Assembly: GCA_027596945.1 (NCBI GenBank)
Contig: JADGJH010000925.1
Coordinates: 2,603-13,122, forward strand
Direction of reading: 5' to 3'
Origin: Physocladia obscura
Lineage: Eukaryota > Chytridiomycota > Chytridiomycetes > Chytridiales > Chytriomycetaceae
Length of the DNA stretch: 10,520 bases
The notes beneath the pieces are model-generated. The model was not told the DNA's origin. It searched no databases and worked only from the letters and a program-made list of their open reading frames with translations. The translations under genes and the position numbers were made by a program. Below, in pieces: positions 156 to 10,520 of the stretch; the first letter of the stretch is position 1; each line of letters begins with the position of its first letter.

Positions 156-2405
156 TCAGCTTCTCAAAACTCTGACTGCAACAAGTCCCAACAAACTCAA
201 TCCAGTAATAGCTCCAGCCGTGGCCACAAAGCTTTTTGAGTCTGTAGCAACGCTCTTATCTATATCAGAAATGTTCAATTTTTCTGTTGCAGTAGTAGTC
301 GACCCATACCAACCCTTACCACCAGATACTTTAGCATTGCCTACAATCGGATGCGTTTCAATAATCTTTTCAGCTTCAGCAATTGGCAAGGGTTTTTTTC
401 CGACTGTGAATGTCTGCTGAGAGTCAATGTATTCATGGAAACTTTCGAAATCGGCTGTACGAACATTGGGATCATACCGACCTATGGCGTGCTCTTGGGA
501 AAGTGTAGATGGGTTCTATCGTTTATTTATTATTTATTGTCATTTAATTTTTTCTTTGTTTTGTAATTTTTTAATTTTACTAACATGGTCTAAATGCGCG
601 TCGAATTCTGTTCTTACGCTCAAAATCGCAGCAGTTTTCTTGAATGCTGATTCAAGATTAGCTTTCACAAGAGCAAAAATATCCAATTCGGACGATGACG
701 GGACATGTGTTTCTACTTCTTTTGTAACAGGAATCTTCGAGGATACAAATTCAGAAGTATAGTTTTGCGAAGCGTTTAGATATTCTTGAGTTGTTTCATA
801 GTCTTCACGGCGCACAGAGTACTTGATATCCTTTGCCTGGCTTGCAATTACATCAAGGGTCTACATGGTTTTTTAATTATTTAACAAATACTGTTTGTTT
901 TTTTTTTTGACTATGTGTTTTTTTTTTTTTTTAATTGTATTTAGTATTTAAGACTTACATCATCATCTAAATGGGCGTCAAATTGACTTGTGCTCGTCAA
1001 TAAACTTGTAGTTGATTTAATAACGGTTTCCAAACTCTGCTCAACCGCAACCGCAGCAGTTTCGAAGAATGAACGACCATGAGAGCTTTCGGTTCCCCGG
1101 TCTTCTTCACTGAAGAGATCGCGTTCTTGAACAACATGAAAGCTTTCATCGGAAGGGGTGTTTGTACGACTCTGCAGCTGGTGTTGTTGCTTTTCAACAA
1201 TAATCAAAGATGCCGCTTGTTGAGCAGCCACAAATTCTTCGTACGTGTCAAAATCTGATTCTTGAAGATTTTTTGATGTAGCGCTATCACCATCATCCTT
1301 GACGAAAATATTTCGATCTTGTGAAACAACTTCGATTCGAGGAATATTTATCTCTTTGTTAGCAATAGATTCCACGTTGATTACTTCAATCAAGCCCGTC
1401 TTTGTTTCCTCTGCCACTGCTGCCACGGCGATCACTTGCTCTTCAATTGCGAAATTGTTTTCAACAGCAGCATCCTTGTTTTCAACCGTCACAAAAATGG
1501 CAGAGGATGATTCCTCAATGATAGATGGAGAATCGGCTGGCTTGATGACATTTCGAATCTTTTTTTCAACTTCTTGTTCCTCATTCACCAAAACAGTTTT
1601 TTTGACTTTACGAGTGTGTGCCGCAATAAAAGCAGCATTATTCCTGTCGAGAGCCGCTTGAACAGTTGCAGCATGAACCTCCGACTCAAAAGCATACACA
1701 AAAGTAAGAAGTCTGTACGAAAAAAAAAGTTGATAGAGAAAGTCCATTTTGTGATTCGGCCAAAAAAACAGGAGAAACAACTCAACTGGTTATTTTCACT
1801 CACAGCATCTGCAAGAGCTTGTTGAAGGTCTGCGCTCGTAACTCTGATCTGAGAACCGATAACAAGCTCTCGAAGACCTTTGTTGGCAATGATTGCTTTG
1901 GCGAGAGAGGCTAATCCGGTATCCGAGATTTCGTTTCCAGAGAGATCAAGTTTTTCTAAATTTGTGTTGAAGTGTAAGGCCTGTTTTGGAAATATAATTA
2001 GTCAGTCCAGGAAAGCGAAGAAAAAGAGAGAAATGAATTGACAGACAGCGAAAGAGAGGTATTTTTGGGACAAACAGATAAATAGCGAAGGAGTGTGCAA
2101 AAAAACAAACACACATTTCCAATAGCAATTATGTCCTCGTCGGTCAGCTGAGCTTCGGTAAGTTCAAGCGCGGCAAAGTCTGCATTTGCGGCGATCTGCT
2201 CGGCAAGGCCAGCAATATCGCCCTCAGTCTCTTCAGCCGTTGTTTCCACAGGTACATCAATGTCGATAATCTCTTCCTCGATTTCCTTGGCCACGACCAC
2301 CGTTTTGGTTTCGTGAACCACAGTTTCCTCAACAGTTTCGCCGAATTCATTTATAAACCGCGTTGTTTCTGAGTGTGTTTGCGGTGGTGTTTGAGAGTTG
2401 GCCAT
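156..2405 (-). CDS. Spliced gene: LRR/tropomodulin-like, repeat-containing protein with C-terminal membrane anchor
   Basis: Five exons are inferred: 2405-2115, 1980-1804, 1684-959, 860-585 and 515-156. They give 609 aa. All four introns are phase 0, with donors GTGTGT, GTGAGT, GTAAGT and GTTAGT and AG acceptors. The ATG at 2405 sits in a good context (AAAAGATGG). Residues 1-97 are acidic, rich in Glu and Thr. Residues about 75-156 form a leucine-rich, ribonuclease-inhibitor or tropomodulin-like unit, with LEKLDLSGNEISDTG and then a helix. The middle is charged and Ala/Glu/Val-rich, probably helical. A motif of the form D-[FY]-[DE]-[ST]-x2-E-[FY] followed by Gln/Ser-rich residues occurs once in each of exons 3, 4 and 5. 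Exons 3 and 4 both end in FDAHLD. The last about 25 residues are hydrophobic (ITGLSLLGLVAV) and end in RVLRS, which suggests a tail-anchored protein of the mitochondrial outer membrane or ER. No frame disruption is seen. The function is unknown; the exon joins are predicted from splice signals and frame only. Confidence 0.8.
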
Positions 2406-2512
2406 CTTTTGCGTTGTTTTTGTGAGTTTAAGTTTCGAAAAGTGTTTCAAAAGACACAAGAACGGACGAATGTCGTCAGCCACAGAAGAAAAAATTTACA
2501 AGAAAAAAAATC

Positions 2513-2857: not shown

Positions 2858-2948
2858 GGGGGGCCCCCTACTATACAGCCCACACACACTTTTCTGCGGA
2901 GCTTCTCTAATAAAATTTTGAATTTCAAAGATTCTAACTGCGGCAAGT

Positions 2949-3274
2949 GACAAATCACCTCAACTTTGAATACAGTGAGGATTGTTCACTTGAATTCAGT
3001 GATGGGTGTTTTGATTTATTTCAGTGTGTGTGTTCGCACAAAATGATGCGTTTATTTTGAGACGAATCAACTCAACTTTGAATAAGTGTTTTATTTACAC
3101 TCAATGAAAGTGATGGGTATTGTGTTTGATTTGAGTGAGAGTATTCATTAAGAAAATTCATTGTTGCGACGAATCAACTCAACCTTGAATAGTCTGTTTA
3201 CTTTACACTGAGAGTTAGTGAGGATTAATGTGATTTATTTCAGTGTGAAGAGTCGCTGAAAACGGTGTGTTGGT
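2949..3274 (+). repeat. Three degenerate tandem units of about 110 bp inside the left TIR
   Basis: Each unit opens with GAC[AG]AATCA[CA]CTCAA[CT][TC]TTGAAT, at 2949, 3061 and 3168, so the spacing is 112 and then 107 bp. Each continues with sequence containing AGTGAGGATT or AGTGATGGGT and then TTTGATTT or GATTTATTTCAGTG. Only one such unit occurs in the right TIR, at the same offset from the outer end (82 nt). Confidence 0.8.
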
Positions 3275-3318
3275 TTGAATGAAATGTGTATTGTGTGGTC
3301 AAAGAAAAAGTCCACTCA

Positions 3319-3331
3319 GCCGGATTTTTTG
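3319..3331 (-). promoter_or_regulatory. CAAAAAATCCGGC motif, left TIR copy
   Basis: On the minus strand this reads CAAAAAATCCGGC. It is one of three occurrences of the core AAAAATCCGGC; the others are at 6658-6669 and 10278-10289. It lies 25 nt before the first ATG of the plus-strand spliced gene at 3356. Its function is unknown; a promoter element or a replication-protein binding site are both possible. Confidence 0.5.
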
Positions 3332-4523
3332 TGCTCAAAATAAGTTGTTCGGACCATGAAACATTTTATCACATACTCGACAAAGCATCGCCTTGCGCAC
3401 AAACAACGACAAACTGCTCCACTGCAGACGCGTGCGCGCTCGCAGTCTGGACCTTCCACGGCGGCCGTCGTAGAACCAAGCGTTGTAGAAGCGACAACTC
3501 ACACAGAGACCACGCAAGAGATGCGTCGTCGTTCCTTGCCCGTCGATTCTGGCCTGCTTACACGTAACTTGTTGTCTGCTTCGAAAGAGACGCGCGAGTT
3601 TTCTTTATCTCCTCCAATTCGGACTTCTGCCAAAAACGCGCGGAACATCATCGATTCAGACAGCGACGAATCTATAGTGCCAAATACCCAAAGAGCCATT
3701 GATTATAATCGCAGCTGTGCCCGATACTTTATCAGTGTTATGGGATGCTGAAATTAGTGATTCAGATGATGGAGAATACGACCATGGAAGTGATTCGGAG
3801 GACTCTTGATTATGAAATTTTCTCCCAGACTCCCAATCATGTAAATATGTTTCTTTGTTTGACTACCCTTACTAACTCCCACCAATAGTCTCAAAATAGC
3901 AATGCAGAGGTATGAATTTGAATTAATTCAATTCACGTGACCATTCTGGTTACTTTAAAAGCTCGCTCTCTTTTTTCATCGTCTTTAAAAAACTCTTTCA
4001 AAAATAGGGAGCGATGGATGACCTTGAGTCAACTAGCGTGAAGCAGAGGCGTACGACCTTGGGAATGGAAGGAATCCAATGTGTTTTTTCGTTCGAGGAC
4101 ATTTCGGTAAATTTCATTCATATGCAAGAGAACTTGTTAACCGAACAATACACAGCTAAAATTTTGTGTATTTGATTATGACCCTGACAACATGCGCTCT
4201 GGTATTCACTTTCATGGTAAAATTTATTTCTGACTACCTGACAAAGCTGATTATTTGGTAAAAACAGTTGCCATCCCTGAAAACGTGTCCCTTGCGAACA
4301 AAAAATTATCAATCAAAATCGAAGCATTCAAGCTTCAAACGATGGCTACTCGTGTGGTGGGTTCTCTATCAAGCTTCCAGATGGGACTGTCATTGGTTTC
4401 AATCGCTCATATCATGCTATAATTAGTTGCGAGACTGCGTCATACAACAATACTTTGGACAAGTTCTTGTACTATTGCTTCGGGTGTGAATTTCTCAAAA
4501 GCAATTTGCACGGAAACCCAAAA

Positions 4524-4646
4524 GTAAGTGTTAAATTCACCCCAACAAACTAGCCGAGATGCCCCCTCATTTAAACACGACCCTCAGCCGGGTCCTGTTC
4601 TCTCTTTTGATTTTTGGATATTTCTTACTAATCTTTATTGGTATAG
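4524..4646 (+). repeat. Intron 5, first copy of a duplicated 123-nt intron
   Basis: This intron runs GTAAGTG...TATAG with a TACTAAT branch-point-like site. It is 123 nt long, exactly the length of the next intron (4770-4892). The first 82 nt share 71 identities with it, and a 53-nt core (GCCGAGATG to TGTTCTCTCT) differs at only two positions. The core includes ACCC-TCAGCC-GGGT, a short inverted repeat. The last 41 nt diverge. Confidence 0.85.
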
Positions 4647-4769
4647 GCTCTCGACCGCGACAAGCAGTACCAGAAGCGCTTGCAAGAGTTGACTGCTGAA
4701 TATGACCTGGATTCTGAGCAGGTCAAGAAGCGCAAAGCCGAGAATCACCCGACAAGCGGCAATCTTGTG

Positions 4770-4892
4770 GTAAGTGTCAAATTCACCCCCTTCTTCCCGC
4801 CGAGATGCCCCCTCATTTAAACACAACCCTCAGCCGGGTCGTGTTCTCTCTCGTTGGACTTTTAATTCACTCTCTGATTATTTGATACGTAG
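4770..4892 (+). repeat. Intron 6, second copy of the duplicated 123-nt intron
   Basis: This intron runs GTAAGTG...ACGTAG with a CTGAT branch-point-like site and is homologous to 4524-4646. It is separated from that copy by one phase-0 exon that is also 123 nt (4647-4769). The flanking exons show no obvious similarity to each other, so the intron alone seems to have been copied. Confidence 0.85.
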
Positions 4893-5944
4893 GTTTCCCT
4901 TGCCCGCAGAGAAAAGTTTGAGTCTTTCATTACGGCAACTGCGCAGGAGTGTAGGAGAGCTGATTTGGAGTGGGTGTCAAAAGCAGGTTTGTTTTTTCAT
5001 TCTAGTTGTCGGCTCTGAACCATTTGTTTAGGAACCAATCAATTCAAAGATGTCACGGAAACTGCATTGGAGGTTAAGACTGTCCAAGAATTTGAAGTTA
5101 TCCTAATGTTATCTTATGCTGCGTACATTGGTGAAATTCATTGGTTTTACTAATATTGGGATTAATTTTGTATTTTGTTTGGAACAAGGGTGTAAATGCG
5201 ATATCTGCAAACGCCCAAATCTTATTTTCCGTTCAGACGCAGGGGCAGAACAGGCCAGTAAAAACCGGTATCTCACGTATTGAATCATGATATTAGCGCT
5301 AACAAACGTTGCTTTTCTGGTTTAGGAAATTCAATAATATCATTTACTCGAACGCGTCTCAAAACATCAATTGGATTTGTGTTTTGTGTAACATGTTAAT
5401 GGGACCGGACGAATTCACAGTGATATCCGAAGAAACAGCAAAGGAGTTCATCGTCGAAATAGGAACTCATTATCGCTCTCCATCTGTGAAACGAAACCGA
5501 AATCGAGTACATTAAAAGGAAAAAGTACAAGGGTCACTACAATAAGGATATGGAAAGGTTCAAAAACCAAAAGAAAAGAGGCTTCACAGTGGTTGGAAAA
5601 ACAGCGACTGTTGAACTTGCAAAGAATAGTGGAGGTTGATGAACGAATGGGGCTGGCTGTGGAATGGGATGCAAAGGCTGAAATAGTCGACTCAGGTATA
5701 AAAACAACCCTCTTTTGGCTTTTCTTTTGGTAACTCTAATTTGAATCCGTAAACACAGCTTTAATCGGAAAAAAATTATGAGGGACCGAGAACGAAACCA
5801 ACAATGAAATTCCAACATTCGAAGGACAATTTAATTGTGTCGCTGTTGTGCCTAAACAAAGCAGAAGGGAATTATGGCGAAAATGCCTTGATGTTGTGGC
5901 AGCGAGGTATTGCTGAAGGTTGGGTCAACGAGCTGTCTGAGGCT

Positions 5945-6582
5945 TCAGTGGATGAAAGGAATGTGGTGATTATGAGCAATGAGAGTGATAGTGAATGACA
6001 ATATCTTAAGAAGTTTATTGTAAAGGCTCTTGCTGATTTGCTCAGTGAGCTTGATTTTCATTTCAGCACGCTCTGTGCCTTGATACTCACGATATTTCTT
6101 GGATTCCAATGTATCATACATATCGTTGAACTCAGAATTTGCAACTGCATATCTTCGAGTGGTTAGAGGAGTGTACTTTGAGAGGAACTGTTTGACTTCG
6201 GCAAACTTATTGACTGTAGTGGCAGTCGAAGTTGATGTAAATTGGGTTATTGAATCAGGAATATACGCTTCCATGCGCATTGGCTGGACAGGAGAAGGTG
6301 CTGTTGATGCTGGAGAAGCTGAAGTTGGAGAACTGCCTTGTTGACTTTGAGCTGCATCATCTGAACTTTGATATGTTGACGCATTTCTCCTACAAGTGTA
6401 CAACTCTCAGTGTCACTTGCTGTACCGTTTGTAGTCACAGGAAGAGCATCAAATTGCGAAAGTATATTTCTGATGATAGGCAGCTTGATAGTGTGCAAAT
6501 CTTGATGTAAATCGTCGGCTGGTTTTGCTAGCTCTCCTCTCATCCACTTGATGAAAGCATCACGGTAGGCATCAAGTGGCAT
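5945..6582 (-). pseudogene. Ser/Thr/Gln-rich element protein, single frameshift
   Basis: The gene starts at ATG 6582 (MPLDAYRDAFIKWMRGEL). The first about 60 residues are helical and charged. Near 6400 the frame must shift by one to keep protein-like sequence: the continuing frame gives ASTYQSSDDAAQSQQ, then a Ser/Pro/Ala linker, then IPDSITQF, a helical tail with FAEVKQFLSKYTPL and KYREYQGTERAEMKIKL, ending at 5945. With the shift removed it would be about 212 aa. It is divergent to the polymerase gene across a 175-bp regulatory region and overlaps the 3' end of the plus-strand spliced gene by 54 bp. No family is recognised. The layout of a folded N-terminus, a flexible linker and a helical C-terminus would fit a DNA-binding or accessory replication protein, but that is a guess. 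Confidence 0.6.
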
Positions 6583-6624
6583 TTGCAGTTGAAAGATTGT
6601 GTTCTAGAATTTCCAAAAATACTA

Positions 6625-6648
6625 TTTGTCTAATCCTCGTTAGACAAA
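6625..6648. promoter_or_regulatory. Palindrome TTTGTCTAA-6 nt-TTAGACAAA
   Basis: A perfect 9-bp inverted repeat with a six-base spacer lies in the divergent intergenic region, 43 nt upstream of the minus-strand ATG at 6582. It is one of two related palindromes here (see 6680-6702). It could be an operator, a replication-initiator site or an RNA hairpin in a 5' leader. Confidence 0.65.
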
Positions 6649-6657
6649 ATGTTTGGA

Positions 6658-6669
6658 CAAAAATCCGGC
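6658..6669 (+). promoter_or_regulatory. CAAAAATCCGGC motif, central copy
   Basis: This 12-mer is identical to 10278-10289 and, on the other strand, near-identical to 3319-3331. It sits between the two TTTGTCT palindromes, 76 nt upstream of the minus-strand gene and 89 nt upstream of the polymerase ATG. It is embedded in CCGGCCG, a short palindrome. Confidence 0.6.
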
Positions 6670-6679
6670 CGAACTAACT

Positions 6680-6702
6680 TTTTGTCTAATTGTCAGACAA
6701 AA
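6680..6702. promoter_or_regulatory. Palindrome TTTTGTCT-7 nt-AGACAAAA
   Basis: A perfect 8-bp inverted repeat with a seven-base spacer uses the same half-site (TTTGTCT) as the palindrome at 6625-6648. Together the two supply four half-sites flanking the CCGG motif. Confidence 0.65.
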
Positions 6703-6733
6703 TGACTAAAAAAAATGAATTTAATTCAAAAAC

Positions 6734-6757
6734 TTATTTTATTTTATAATACTAAAC
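6734..6757 (+). promoter_or_regulatory. A/T box immediately before the polymerase ATG
   Basis: The run TTATTTTATTTTATAATACT directly precedes the ATG at 6758. A very similar run, TTATTTTCTTTTATTATAAT, directly precedes the ATG at 10186 on the minus strand. The position and similarity suggest a shared core promoter or leader element. Confidence 0.5.
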
Positions 6758-9591
6758 ATGTTCTTGTTGAAAAGTGTACGTTCTTTCTACCAAAGTATAC
6801 AGCTATTTGAGCCAAACAATTATGCCCTGACTTACAAAGGGCTGTTCATCCCTTGTAAGAGAAGAAGTAGAACTGTTGTAAACAGATTGAAGCTTCCTTG
6901 TAATGAAAAGGAGCACAAGATGTTGCAAGCACACATTGCAAATCTTATACGAAACAATAAAGCAACAATTATTGGAAACTATATTCTAAAGCTGGACAAC
7001 ACATTCATCAAGAAAACTGACAAGACAATGAAGCAACTTCAAAACGGGGGGTATGGATGTTGTTCACAATGTTTTGAAGAAGGAGGCCAGATTCACCTGA
7101 TCCATCAAGAAAGGAGCAACAAATGGACATTTTAATGAAAAGAAAGAGGCCAAATGTCCCGTTTGATGCTCAAAAAGAAAGACACATTGAATATTTGTTG
7201 TACTATCTTCCAACTCTCTTCTCACAGAGAGTAATTGTGACTTATGAATTCAAGTATGTGATTCATTATGGAGATTACAATTATGAAGACAGCAAAACAG
7301 GCATCATTCTGGATATTCCTGACCATTTGATTGAACAACACCTTGACACTCTGACAAAAGAATATGCTCAGAGGCAGCCTTACGATTGTGATATTTTAGA
7401 AATTGATTATACTACTCAACCAGTTCCACATCAACAAGCAGCTTTATTGGAACAAAGAATGTTTGGGACTGTTTTAAACTATCACCATTTAAACCTTGCA
7501 CCAAACTTTACCAATGAAAACATTTGTGTTCATCAACATTTATTAGACACGTATTCAAAACACATTAAAGGAATAACTTTCAATGGTTTAAAAGGTATCT
7601 TTGAAGAAGACGAGATTGATACTGGAATAACAACAAATCAAGTAGTTTGATTCTATGAAAAGTATGGAATTAGCTTGTATGCAATGGATTTAGAGTTTGA
7701 GATTTTCTGCCAACATGTCCCCAAAGTCAGAAATCACTATGTCCCATGCTTGATTTACATTGTAGACCACATGTATTCTGTATTAGAAGAGGAGCTTAGA
7801 AGGAGTATTGTTGCATCTGAGAAGACAAAGGGCACCAACAATTCAAGAGTCTTTAAGCTAAAAGAGAAGCAAGTGAATACTTTTGATAGAACAATCAAAA
7901 CTCTATTAAATGTTCCATATGAAACTCTAAGTCAACTTGAAAACTGTATGTTGTTTATACTAATAGAGAAGACCTTTCAGATTTGGTTGTATATTTGACA
8001 CAGACTGAACAAACTGTATACAAGACACGAGGTAATGGCAGGCATATATTTCGAATTGAATATAAGAACAACGTCATTATTAAAGTCAACAAGCACTATC
8101 AAGAGTCATTGTCAGTATCAAAAGCATTAACAATTCCTTTTAGAAACCAAAACCTCATCAGTTTGGTCTTAGAGGCCTTCCAAATATACAAGGGTGATGA
8201 CTTTATAGAGAGCACATTCAATCGAGTGACTCAATCTGTTTTCTCCAACTGTGTCAAGGGAGCAATCATTGATACATTTTATGAACCATCAGAATTGGCT
8301 GATTTAAAGAGTTTCGATATTCAAAAATGCCATACAGCATGTTTAACTATCAAGAATGAAATGCCTTGGTCTGTGTTTAGCATTTTTGATGAAGTCAAGC
8401 CGTACTCTGGTAAATTGAGAACTGGATTCTATTATGTTGAAACTGAGAATACGTTTCCACTAAGAGGAACTCGTTGGTATTCAGCACCCATACTCTGATA
8501 TTGTCAAATGATTGGAGTGCCACTCAAGATTGTATATGAAATTATCCCAAGTAAGACTCTCAAAGCAGACTACTTCAATGATTTTGTAAAGAGAATATAT
8601 GACAAGAATAGCGATAATGCAAAGCTAATGATTAATTGTTTTGTTGGATGCTTGAACAAAAGAAGCGATAAAAAGCAGACAGATAGGTTTACAATGAGTT
8701 TGAATGATGCAGTTCAATACTTTTTCTCAAACAAAAATACAGTGTATTCATGGATCTCACAAGACCCTAAATTGTATCACATTTCCATAAAAAATGACAC
8801 TCTAAAGCATTTCAACACAATTCCAATATACTGGCAGGTGATTGATAATGGCAATATGATGTTGCATCAATTAGCAATGAAAATGGTAGAATTGTCAAGC
8901 TAAAGACTGATTGTGTGGTAGTTGAGGATGGCAATGATGATAGGCAATTATCATATAGAAGCATTACCAAAAGAGTACAAAGTATCCAAGGCATTCAAGA
9001 GCACATATGCGTTTCAGCTTGAGAATAAAGACTGGATTCCAACAGAAAATAGATTAGAGCATCAGTTATTAACTGGAATTGCAGGTACAGGGAAGTCAAC
9101 AGACGTCAGAGAAACCATTAAAGAACTGGAGCCTGGTTTGTTTGTACTATTAGCAAGTACAAACAAGGCAGCAAGATTGATAAATGGTCAGACAGTCCAC
9201 CATTTCTTTCATATATGACAAGTGCAACTTGAAGGAAGTGGTAAAGGCAGCCAGCAGATATCAATACATTTTCATTGATAAAATTGGCATGCTGAGAGCA
9301 ACAATTTATGAAATCTTGTATTATGTGAAGCTGCAAACAAAAGTCAAGTTTGTGTTAGTTTGTGACTATAAACAGTTGGGAGGCATAGAGAAAAACAACT
9401 GGAAATATGATTACCTCAGTACCCTAGCATTAAAGAAACTGATTGATTACAGTATAACAGAGCTCTTGATTAATCACCATTCAGACAACTCAGTAACAGT
9501 GCTATTTGACATTGTGCACACATTGAATCCAAGTGACTTTGACAATGAGCACATGTTTACTCAAGTATCTCAACAATCTTCTCTTTGTTGA
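6758..9591 (+). pseudogene. Family-B DNA polymerase fused to SF1 (Pif1/RecD-like) helicase, degraded
   Basis: One intronless coding region spans several frames. The N-terminal part (6758-7650) has no recognised motif. From about 7651 the sequence (EKYGISLYAMDLEFEIF, then HYVPCLIYIVDHMY) resembles polymerase-helicase proteins I associate with fungal and virus-like elements. Polymerase motif A is SFDIQKCHTACL (about 8310-8345). Motif B is KLMINCFVGC (8622-8651). Motif C is KTDCVVV (8903-8923) in another frame, with a single Asp. The helicase follows: Walker A GIAGTGKST (9075-9101), an ASTNKAA segment and TVHHFF, then Walker B FIDKIGM (9271-9291) and CDYKQLGG. The Walker B Glu is replaced by Lys and LPP by LGG. 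Helicase motifs IV-VI are absent. Frame shifts lie near 7080, 7945, 8876, 8945 and 9205; in-frame TGAs are at 7648 and 8496. It would replicate the element, and pairing with TIRs suggests protein-primed replication. The copy is clearly non-functional. Confidence 0.85.
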
Positions 9592-9988
9592 ATTCCTTCT
9601 TGAGATGATGGTAGAGTCTCTTCTAGATAGCTGGCTGGTTGTGATGGAGTCCTTTGCAGAGGTTTGAGTTGCCTTTCATCAAGTCTTGTTTGATTTGCTG
9701 AATCCTCTTTTTATTGTCACCACTGCTCTTCTTTCTTAGATAATAGACAAGTATATTGTCGACAAGAAACAAGTCACTATCAGTCTCATAGCATTCATTT
9801 CCATCCATTAATTGTTTTATTTTATCCAGTAATGAATGTTTTATATCAATCACCGACAGCTTCTCGAAATCAGGGTCTGTTGCCTCTCTCAGCTCTGATT
9901 AAAGTCTCTTGACAGTCTCTTCTAACTCATTGATTCATTCCTTCATTGATTGGTTAATGTTGACTCTTGTTGGATTGATCATTTTCAT
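9557..9988 (-). pseudogene. Right-arm coiled-coil-like element gene with in-frame stops
   Basis: Reading from ATG 9988 on the minus strand, one frame stays protein-like for 432 nt despite three stops: TGA at 9937, TAA at 9901 and TAG at 9625. It contains INELEETVKRL, PDFEKLSVIDIKHSLLDKIK, SDLFLVDNILVYYLRKK and KRIQQIKQDLMKG. After the TAG it continues as KRLYHHLKKEFNKEKIVEIL and stops at TAA 9559-9557. The composition is Lys/Leu/Glu-rich and helical. The ATG directly follows the TAG that ends the ORF at 9989-10186, in the same frame, so both could be one original gene with four nonsense mutations (about 209 codons). Its 3' end overlaps the polymerase-helicase region by 35 bp. No family is recognised. 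Confidence 0.6.
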
Positions 9989-10186
9989 CTATTTATCAGG
10001 TACTTCAATAATGACAGGCTCGTTTGAACTGAAATAAGGTATGCCTACTTTTGAAAGAGTTGTATTGATTTTACGTTCTTGTACCTCATAAGTGTGTTCA
10101 TTACGTGGGTCCTTGTAGATTGTTCCAATAGGAAGTGTCTTCAAGAATCGATTTCTCACAGTTGTGGATGGAATTGTGACAGTCAT
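9989..10186 (-). CDS. Small 65-aa right-arm ORF (or N-terminal part of a longer broken gene)
   Basis: ATG 10186 opens a 65-codon ORF (MTVTIPSTTVRNRFLKTLP, then GTIYKDPRNEHTYEV and a C-terminal VIIEVPDK) ending in TAG at 9991-9989. The ATG is preceded by an A/T box like the one before the polymerase, and 92 nt further upstream by the CAAAAATCCGGC motif at the TIR's inner end. This supports 10186 as the true start; the open frame extends further upstream to 10333, into the TIR, without an ATG that fits. The sequence looks like a small beta-rich domain. The next codon after the stop is an in-frame ATG that opens further protein-like sequence, so the TAG may be a nonsense mutation. The function is unknown. 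Confidence 0.55.
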   Translation of the reverse strand: MTVTIPSTTVRNRFLKTLPIGTIYKDPRNEHTYEVQERKINTTLSKVGIPYFSSNEPVIIEVPDK

Positions 10187-10213
10187 AGTTTTATTATAAT
10201 AAAAGAAAATAAT
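10187..10213 (-). promoter_or_regulatory. A/T box immediately before the right-arm ATG
   Basis: On the minus strand, TTATTTTCTTTTATTATAAT and a few A-rich bases lead directly into the ATG at 10186. Thirteen of its first 14 bases match the run before the polymerase ATG at 6758. Confidence 0.5.
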
Positions 10214-10269
10214 TTTATGTAAATATCGTTCAATTGAAATTAAAATAGTCGTTGATGTAATGTGTCTAT

Positions 10270-10520
10270 TTTTAGTACAAAAATCCGGCTGTGCGGACTT
10301 TTTCTTTGACCTCAGAACACACATTACATTCAAACGAACACACCGTTTTCAGCGACTCTTCTCCCTAACATAAATTACAATACCTCCACTAACTCCCAGT
10401 GAACACTCTTCACGCCATTCAAAGTTGAGTTGATTTATCACTTGCCGTAGTTGGATTCTCATCAATTCAAATATTTATTACAGAAGCTCCACAGAAAAGT
10501 GTGTGTGGGCTGTACAGCAG
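10270..10520 (-). repeat. Right terminal inverted repeat (reaches the window edge)
   Basis: It is the reverse complement of the left repeat at 2868-3343, with one copy of the 110-bp unit instead of three. The outer 103 nt align without gaps; inner blocks AGTCGCTGAAAACGGTGTGTT and CAAAGAAAAAGTCC are also shared. The repeat is still matching at base 10520, so it may continue beyond the window. Confidence 0.9.
10278..10289 (+). promoter_or_regulatory. CAAAAATCCGGC motif, right TIR copy
   Basis: This copy is identical to 6658-6669. It is followed by TGTGCGGACTTTTT, so AAAAATCCG and CGGACTTTTT can form an imperfect hairpin. It is 92 nt upstream of the minus-strand ATG at 10186. Confidence 0.55.

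What the first reader, a model, noticed from the sequence alone, without database searches (positions are those of the whole stretch)
2868..10520. TIR-bounded element with its own polymerase-helicase and a spliced nuclease-like gene: possibly an undescribed class
Long terminal inverted repeats enclose a family-B polymerase fused to an SF1 helicase, a gene with an HNH-like zinc segment, and two unrecognised genes. Polintons use a protein-primed PolB plus a retroviral-type integrase and capsid genes, and Helitrons use a Rep-helicase without TIRs. This layout matches neither. The four-gene, two-convergent-pair architecture could define a distinct eukaryotic self-replicating transposon family.
Basis: partly seen in the sequence, partly recalled or inferred. 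Interest (0 to 1): 0.9.

Follow-up and report, generated by a model that had tools for sequence, protein, structure and literature searches.

The report
Capsid-less polymerase-helicase transposon in chytrid fungus
The window holds a decayed copy of a multi-copy mobile DNA element, probably of a chytrid fungus, that carries its own viral-type DNA-copying enzyme fused to a helicase while no virus shell gene was recognised in it, making it a likely small nuclear cousin of elements described from virus-like transposons and from parasites of giant viruses.

Summary
The element is real: one copy of a dispersed family in a 21.76 Mb genome, probably a chytrid (polymerase matches on 59 contigs). The window copy is dead: broken frames, and 1.75 kb missing relative to copy C951. 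Its right end is the contig end.

Fuller copies (about 8.6-8.7 kb) carry variable left gene(s), a pPolB-SF1 helicase-HNH gene (+), a zinc-finger gene (+), gene D (-), and TIRs. The large protein has the published Tlr1-like helicase (pPolB-S1H) architecture: invariant vOTU-position Cys/His, a palm whose motif C lacks its first Asp, then an SF1 helicase. The palm evolved under purifying selection (median dN/dS 0.14).

No capsid, packaging ATPase or integrase was recognised. Most readable ends are variable C-tracts preceded by A; 9 two-ended copies share no fixed-length target duplication. Published carriers of the fusion are capsid-bearing (Tlr1, polinton-like viruses) or episomes of giant viruses (transpovirons). 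I read this as a new variant: a capsid-less, nuclear, transpoviron-like element, probably replicated as protein-primed linear DNA and inserted by end-joining. Replication and insertion are inferred. A wholly new class is not supported.

The parts
2864..3330 (+). Left terminal inverted repeat and subterminal repeats; outer end is a C-tract followed by TACTATACAGCC
   Evidence: the repeat finder arms 2868-3001 and 3226-3329; same end type on other contigs
2945..3191 (+). Three direct repeats (28-nt core, spacing 112 and 107) inside the left TIR; possible protein-binding sites (inference)
   Evidence: repeat family D2
10279..10520 (-). Right terminal inverted repeat; cut off by the contig end
   Evidence: the repeat finder; contig length 13122 = window end
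3356..5998 (+). Left gene: spliced, HNH-like zinc segment (CxxC ... WICVLCN) at about 5190-5400; broken frame
   Evidence: ORF pieces; a piece is 86-89% identical on C427 and C525, 39-50% on C1217, C182, C588; no Pfam HNH hit
4524..4646 (+). Intron 1 of the left gene (GT...AG), near-identical core to intron 2
   Evidence: repeat families D3 and D7; 33 matches in the genome; borders read by eye
4770..4892 (+). Intron 2 of the left gene, twin of intron 1
   Evidence: repeat families D3 and D7; borders read by eye
5990..6603 (-). Gene C (unknown), convergent with the left gene; seen in a subset of copies
   Evidence: ORF pieces 5945-6406 and 6247-6603; 90% identical DNA in L064
6725..9566 (+). 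Remnant of the pPolB-SF1 helicase gene (Tlr1-like helicase), with stops and frame changes, 3' part deleted
   Evidence: 88% DNA identity to the C951 copy; the C951 protein is 89% identical to Obelidium P0007
7440..7795 (+). vOTU-like cysteine protease segment (NICVHQH ... DHMYS)
8310..8930 (+). PolB palm: motif A DIQKC, motif B KLMINCFVG, motif C KTD (the last in a shifted frame)
9070..9566 (+). SF1 (Pif1/Dda-like) helicase N-terminal part with Walker A GIAGTGKST
   Evidence: PF05970 E 2.9e-4 in the window piece, below its cut-off; PF13245 E 1.1e-11 in the C951 copy
9566..9572 (.). Deletion junction: about 1.75 kb present in C951 is absent here
   Evidence: L061 5871 to 7619 against window 9566 to 9572; no zinc-finger gene match on C853
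9593..10186 (-). Gene D (about 200 aa, unknown), convergent with the polymerase gene; broken
   Evidence: 105 matches on 83 contigs for the piece 9989-10348

Best explanation
The region is a decayed copy of a capsid-less mobile element of a chytrid nuclear genome, built around a pPolB-S1H ('Tlr1-like helicase') replication protein.

Shown: family structure, gene order, domain signature, selection on the palm, C-tract ends, no fixed target duplication in the copies tested.

Inferred mechanism: the element replicates as a linear DNA. The N-terminal domain of the fusion primes DNA synthesis at the ends and the vOTU domain cuts it off. The palm copies by strand displacement with help of the fused helicase. 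Slipping of the primed start on the terminal C-tract explains its variable length. The linear copy is then joined into chromosome breaks by host end-joining, which would leave no fixed target duplication. The breaks may be made by the element's HNH-type nuclease(s): the C-terminal HNH and perhaps the left gene.
For: Copies: 77 polymerase matches on 59 contigs; gene D 105 matches on 83 contigs; zinc-finger gene 81 matches. Order: polymerase and gene D convergent on 22 of 23 contigs, 16 of the 22 at 3.1-3.3 kb.
Function during spread: dN/dS on a 182-codon palm piece from 23 of the 30 loci cut out, median 0.139 (0.056-0.276) in the 77 of 253 copy pairs with 0.3<dS<2.
Ends: of 43 ends with a C-run of 4-11 picked out by script, 35 have A before it; one of the 43 (L043) is not an element end; 15 other ends had no such run. 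No shared fixed-length target duplication in 9 two-ended copies.
Against: No extrachromosomal form, terminal protein or end-joining footprint was seen. The terminal-protein domain could not be identified. Two of 9 copies have possible 5-base duplications (CAAAA, TTAAA), and the observed mean best match (2.2) is above that of mismatched pairs (1.25), so an ordinary integrase with decayed duplications is not excluded. The A before the C-tract could be a target preference of an unknown integrase. Fifteen ends had no C-run. Lack of capsid genes rests on the ORFs of a few long copies; C951 is cut at its left end by the contig start and C365 was read only near its ends and in pieces. The genome-wide capsid profile search was uninformative. 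The C-terminal HNH of the chytrid proteins is a motif, not a significant Pfam hit (HNH_4 E 0.23).
Confidence: 0.6

Rival explanations
1. These are shortened, non-autonomous remains of a full polinton-like virus of chytrids. A capsid-bearing parent with the same ends supplies integrase and particle genes.
For: Many copies are internally deleted (0.5 to 4.3 kb between ends). A polinton-like virus was reported integrated in the chytrid Spizellomyces punctatus (PMC7805220, passages). A separate PolB remnant with motif KLFLNALWGKFGQR lies on C275.
Against: The same right-hand gene set recurs on many contigs, with selection on the polymerase. No Pox_A32-type packaging ATPase was found in the genome; this profile rang in 2 of 14 control genomes. 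The capsid profile search rang nowhere, controls included, so it does not decide.
Confidence: 0.2
2. A transposon that copies itself in place: an HNH nuclease nicks the target and the nicked end primes the element's polymerase, as in target-primed transposition.
For: The Obelidium homologue and C951 P0002 end in an HNH-like motif (HNH_4 only E 0.23); the left genes of some copies share a weakly HNH-like stretch with Physocladia P0013.
Against: TIRs at both ends of several copies, and a polymerase of the protein-primed kind, fit a linear intermediate better. The literature takes such nucleases on these proteins for homing-type insertions (PMC11071308, passage).
Confidence: 0.12
3. A transpoviron-like satellite of a giant virus that infects chytrids, which entered the nuclear genome repeatedly.
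For: Same size class, TIRs of hundreds of bases, pPolB-S1H protein and a zinc-finger gene as the transpovirons (PMC7031253, passages; PMC3671162, passages).
Against: Introns in the left gene and dozens of dispersed copies fit a nuclear life. No giant virus is tied to it here; this was not searched.
Confidence: 0.1

Closest known systems
Tlr1 element of Tetrahymena and polinton-like viruses with a Tlr1-like helicase (pPolB-S1H)
   Same: Fusion of vOTU, palm without the first Asp of motif C, SF1 helicase, and a C-terminal HNH or GIY-YIG nuclease
   Different: Those are viruses with capsid genes, and Tlr1 has an RVE integrase (PMC11071308, passages); none was recognised here
Transpovirons of Mimiviridae
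   Same: Element of about 7 kb with TIRs of 380-520 nt, helicase and zinc-finger protein among its core genes (PMC7031253, passages); pPolB-S1H and no structural module (PMC11071308)
   Different: Here chromosomal, in dozens of copies, with introns, a left HNH-like gene and an HNH-like end of the fusion; no tie to a giant virus seen or searched
Polintons/Mavericks
   Same: Protein-primed family-B polymerase, long TIRs
   Different: No RVE integrase or capsid genes recognised, no fixed duplication found; polymerase fused to a helicase
OmPLV of Oxyrrhis marina (SF1 helicase-pPolB fusion)
   Same: Fusion of the same two activities in an endogenous element (PMC12721341, abstract and passages)
   Different: Opposite domain order, complete exonuclease, about 25 kb with capsid gene and tyrosine recombinase
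Spizellomyces punctatus polinton-like virus
   Same: Chytrid host, integrated element (PMC7805220, passages)
   Different: Not compared by sequence here

Membership tests
pPolB-S1H (Tlr1-like helicase) elements | Protein-primed PolB palm with motifs A and B, motif C lacking the first Asp | tested here: met
pPolB-S1H (Tlr1-like helicase) elements | SF1 helicase fused C-terminal to the palm | tested here: met
   PF13245/PF05970 in the C951 protein and PF13245 in Obelidium P0007; Pif1/Dda structures
pPolB-S1H (Tlr1-like helicase) elements | Conserved Cys and His at the vOTU position | tested here: met
   Cys180 and His263 invariant in 10 of 10 sequences
pPolB-S1H (Tlr1-like helicase) elements | OTU fold of that domain | tested here: inconclusive
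pPolB-S1H (Tlr1-like helicase) elements | No exonuclease domain | tested here: inconclusive
   The phi29 alignment starts at model residue 305 and spans chain residues 6-499, so an exonuclease-like remnant may sit before the palm
pPolB-S1H (Tlr1-like helicase) elements | Terminal-protein domain before vOTU | tested here: inconclusive
   A small domain there gave only generic matches
Polinton/Maverick | RVE integrase and capsid (MCP, mCP), ATPase, protease genes | tested here: not met
   The long ORFs of C951 and ORFs of C988, C427 and C16 copies gave no such Pfam or PHROG match; no Pox_A32 in the genome
Polinton/Maverick | Fixed target duplication (6 bp, recalled) | tested here: not met
   9 two-ended copies share no fixed length
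Polinton-like virus | Double jelly-roll capsid gene in the element | tested here: inconclusive
   No ORF recognised as one in the copies read, but the capsid profile rang in no control either
Transpoviron | Episome of a Mimiviridae virus | not tested
   Chromosomal copies shown; no search for a giant virus was made
Transpoviron | pPolB-S1H helicase plus zinc-finger gene between TIRs | tested here: met
   homology of the zinc-finger genes to those of transpovirons was not tested
Helitron | Rep (HUH) fused to helicase, no TIRs | tested here: not met
   TIRs present; no Rep match for the ORF pieces scanned

The most novel reading that the evidence does not exclude
A distinct lineage of capsid-less, self-synthesising TIR elements of chytrid fungi that needs neither virus particle nor giant-virus helper. 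It is replicated by a pPolB-SF1 helicase-HNH protein as protein-capped linear DNA and inserted, without target duplication, at breaks made by its own HNH nucleases. It would be the nuclear counterpart of transpovirons.
Probability: 0.35. Interest if true: 0.8.

Novelty: new variant of a known kind. Interest (0 to 1): 0.6.

Why it matters
pPolB-S1H proteins are placed at the junction of polintons, polinton-like viruses and transpovirons, and loss of the structural module has been inferred for transpovirons (PMC11071308, passages). A capsid-less member living as a high-copy nuclear element in fungi would show that loss in a cellular genome and give a host group (cultured chytrids) in which protein-primed replication and integrase-free insertion of a transposon can be tested. 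The element's genes also show strong CpG-type decay, a handle on how chytrids silence mobile DNA.

Tried and rejected
Considered and set aside.
Helitron: the arms are inverted and no Rep was found in the pieces scanned.
Standard Polinton: no integrase or capsid gene recognised, no fixed duplication.
Ordinary cut-and-paste transposon with TIRs: no transposase match in the ORFs scanned.
The left gene as a known nuclease: Pfam pieces gave nothing. A homologue search with the Physocladia N-terminal part returned only itself. C951 P0004 and Physocladia P0013 align weakly (28% over 82 aa, E about 5e-5).
Relatives in viral contigs: 52 pattern matches for A1 and 3 for P0016, none confirmed. The wider alignment A2 could not be used.
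Capsid: PF04451 rang nowhere, controls included, so it shows nothing.
Second structure model (P0013, mean pLDDT 52.2): Foldseek gave no match at E <= 0.001; the OTU match by VIA-align is modest, the rest uninformative.
BFVD top match H6WBE3 (E 6e-36, 983 columns) has no name in the table; that it is a transpoviron protein would be recall and is not claimed.
No report of such elements in chytrids was seen in the listings of searches of the open library. The 2016 paper on the fusion (PMC5499653) is not held and was not read. Bellas et al. excluded fungi from their survey (PMC10120064, passage).

Full report
WHAT IS THERE. The window lies at the end of contig C853 of a 21.76 Mb, 1222-contig genome. 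Left of 2864 is host sequence with an intron-rich gene, one exon of which matches a leucine-rich repeat (LRR_6 E 3e-7). From 2864 to the contig end lies a TIR-bounded element. The arms are 82% and 88% alike over 134 and 104 nt, and the left arm also holds three direct repeats of a 28-nt core. The window ends where the contig ends, so the outermost bases of the right arm and its flank are missing.

IT IS A DISPERSED FAMILY. The left TIR probe gave 57 matches, the window's own included. Probes from three end types each reached the limit of 40 scored candidates. A polymerase piece matched 77 places on 59 contigs, a gene D piece 105 places on 83 contigs, the zinc-finger gene 81 places. Of 23 contigs with both polymerase and gene D, 22 hold them convergent, 16 of these at 3.1-3.3 kb; C820 is the exception, and the window's own spacing is 1.5 kb. 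In typed subsets of the hits the zinc-finger gene follows the polymerase on 28 of 28 contigs and faces gene D on 33 of 33. Two copies measure about 8.6-8.7 kb: C951, whose left end runs into the contig start, and C365, known from its two ends, which are of different type, and from pieces between them. Two-ended copies of 0.5-4.3 kb also exist.

ANATOMY. In C951 (L061) the order is: TIR; ORFs of 209 and 315 aa; polymerase-helicase ORF of 937 aa followed, after a frame change, by 303 aa ending in EIDHI...NLRLISRKENNKLG; zinc-finger ORF of 190 aa; gene D on the other strand; TIR. The left part differs between copies. The window type is shared with C427 and C525 (86-89% in one piece) and more weakly with C1217, C182 and C588 (39-50%, and a second short C588 piece at 70%). 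The C951 type has a partial match on C195. A third type on C16 matches the N-terminal part of a Chytriomyces confervae protein. The window copy is shorter: against C951 it lacks 1.75 kb between 9566 and 9572, and its genes carry stops and frame changes. Fuller copies exist on other contigs.

COMPARISON WITH PRINT. In passages read of PMC11071308, Tlr1-like helicases are described as proteins with vOTU, a palm lacking the first Asp of motif C, an SF1 helicase, and in different polinton-like viruses a C-terminal GIY-YIG or HNH nuclease; transpovirons, which lost the structural module, encode them too. That is this protein. Passages of PMC7031253 give transpoviron TIRs of 380-520 nt and a helicase and a zinc-finger protein among three core genes. 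Passages of PMC12721341 describe a fusion in the opposite order. Passages of PMC7805220 report a polinton-like virus integrated in a chytrid.

FUNCTION AND AGE. On a 182-codon palm piece from 23 copies (of 30 loci cut out, of 77 matches), 77 of 253 pairs had 0.3<dS<2 and gave dN/dS of median 0.139 (0.056-0.276); 14 pairs with dS of at most 0.3 had median 0.195; the rest were saturated or undefined and dropped. So the protein was functional while the family spread. In the pairs computed the copies are well diverged. Stops in 32 aligned records (three copies are held twice) are 120 TGA, 37 TAA and 24 TAG, with 39 of the TGA opposite arginine. CpG observed/expected is 0.64 in the window element against 1.05 in its host flank, and 0.58-0.76 in the four other stretches measured, of which only the C951 value is element alone. 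This points to decay at methylated CpG sites (inference).

ENDS AND INSERTION. A script picked out 43 ends with a C-run of 4-11 (33 of 43 with 5-7); the base before the run is A in 35, G in 4, T in 4. One of the 43 (L043) is not an element end, and 15 other ends had no such run; a hand list had given A in 33 of 39. In 9 two-ended copies the best shared string at the two flanks averages 2.2 bases against 1.25 in 72 mismatched pairs. Two copies reach five bases (CAAAA, TTAAA), seven have two or fewer. For C2 and C365 the two ends are of different type, so each may belong to two insertions. There is thus no fixed-length duplication, though a decayed one cannot be ruled out.

HOST. A chytrid is inferred from the named homologues and from a family-B polymerase on C443 whose frame is open if TAG is read as leucine; that chytrid mitochondria use this code is recalled.

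VERDICT. A real, multi-copy, decayed element. It belongs by its replication protein to the Tlr1/polinton-like/transpoviron network, and is unusual in being, as far as read, capsid-less, nuclear and fungal. The linear protein-primed life cycle and end-joining insertion are inference. On re-checking, confidence in the best explanation was lowered from 0.62 to 0.60 because of the 15 ends without a C-run.

Noticed in passing
window 4524-4646 and 4770-4892: Two successive introns of the left gene are near-identical in their core (53 nt at 96%, 20 nt at 95%). The intron probe matched 33 places, several in pairs; most of their contigs also turn up in the element searches. The repeated intron thus seems to travel with the element rather than be dispersed in host genes.
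   Followed up: partly
copies of the polymerase gene, e.g. window 6725-9566: Stops are mostly TGA, most often opposite arginine, and CpG is depleted in the element stretches but not in the window's host flank: methylation-type decay in a chytrid.
   Followed up: partly
L096 (G000 contig C443), 3-3873: A family-B polymerase in two long ORFs, open with TAG=Leu: probably a mitochondrial plasmid-type polymerase.
   Followed up: no
L098 1087-1854 (contig C275) and contig C33: DNA_pol_B_2 remnants (motif KLFLNALWGKFGQR seen on C275), a different, more polinton-like polymerase on a contig that also holds an element copy.
   Followed up: no
L064 (contig C16), around contig position 22116: One element end is preceded by sequence that looks like the inner TIR of another copy: a nested insertion.
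   Followed up: no
L059 (C225) and L069 (C632), left ends: Two copies share similar outer flanks, suggesting a duplicated region or repeated target.
   Followed up: no
window 500-2495: Intron-rich host gene on the minus strand with a leucine-rich repeat exon next to the element.
   Followed up: no
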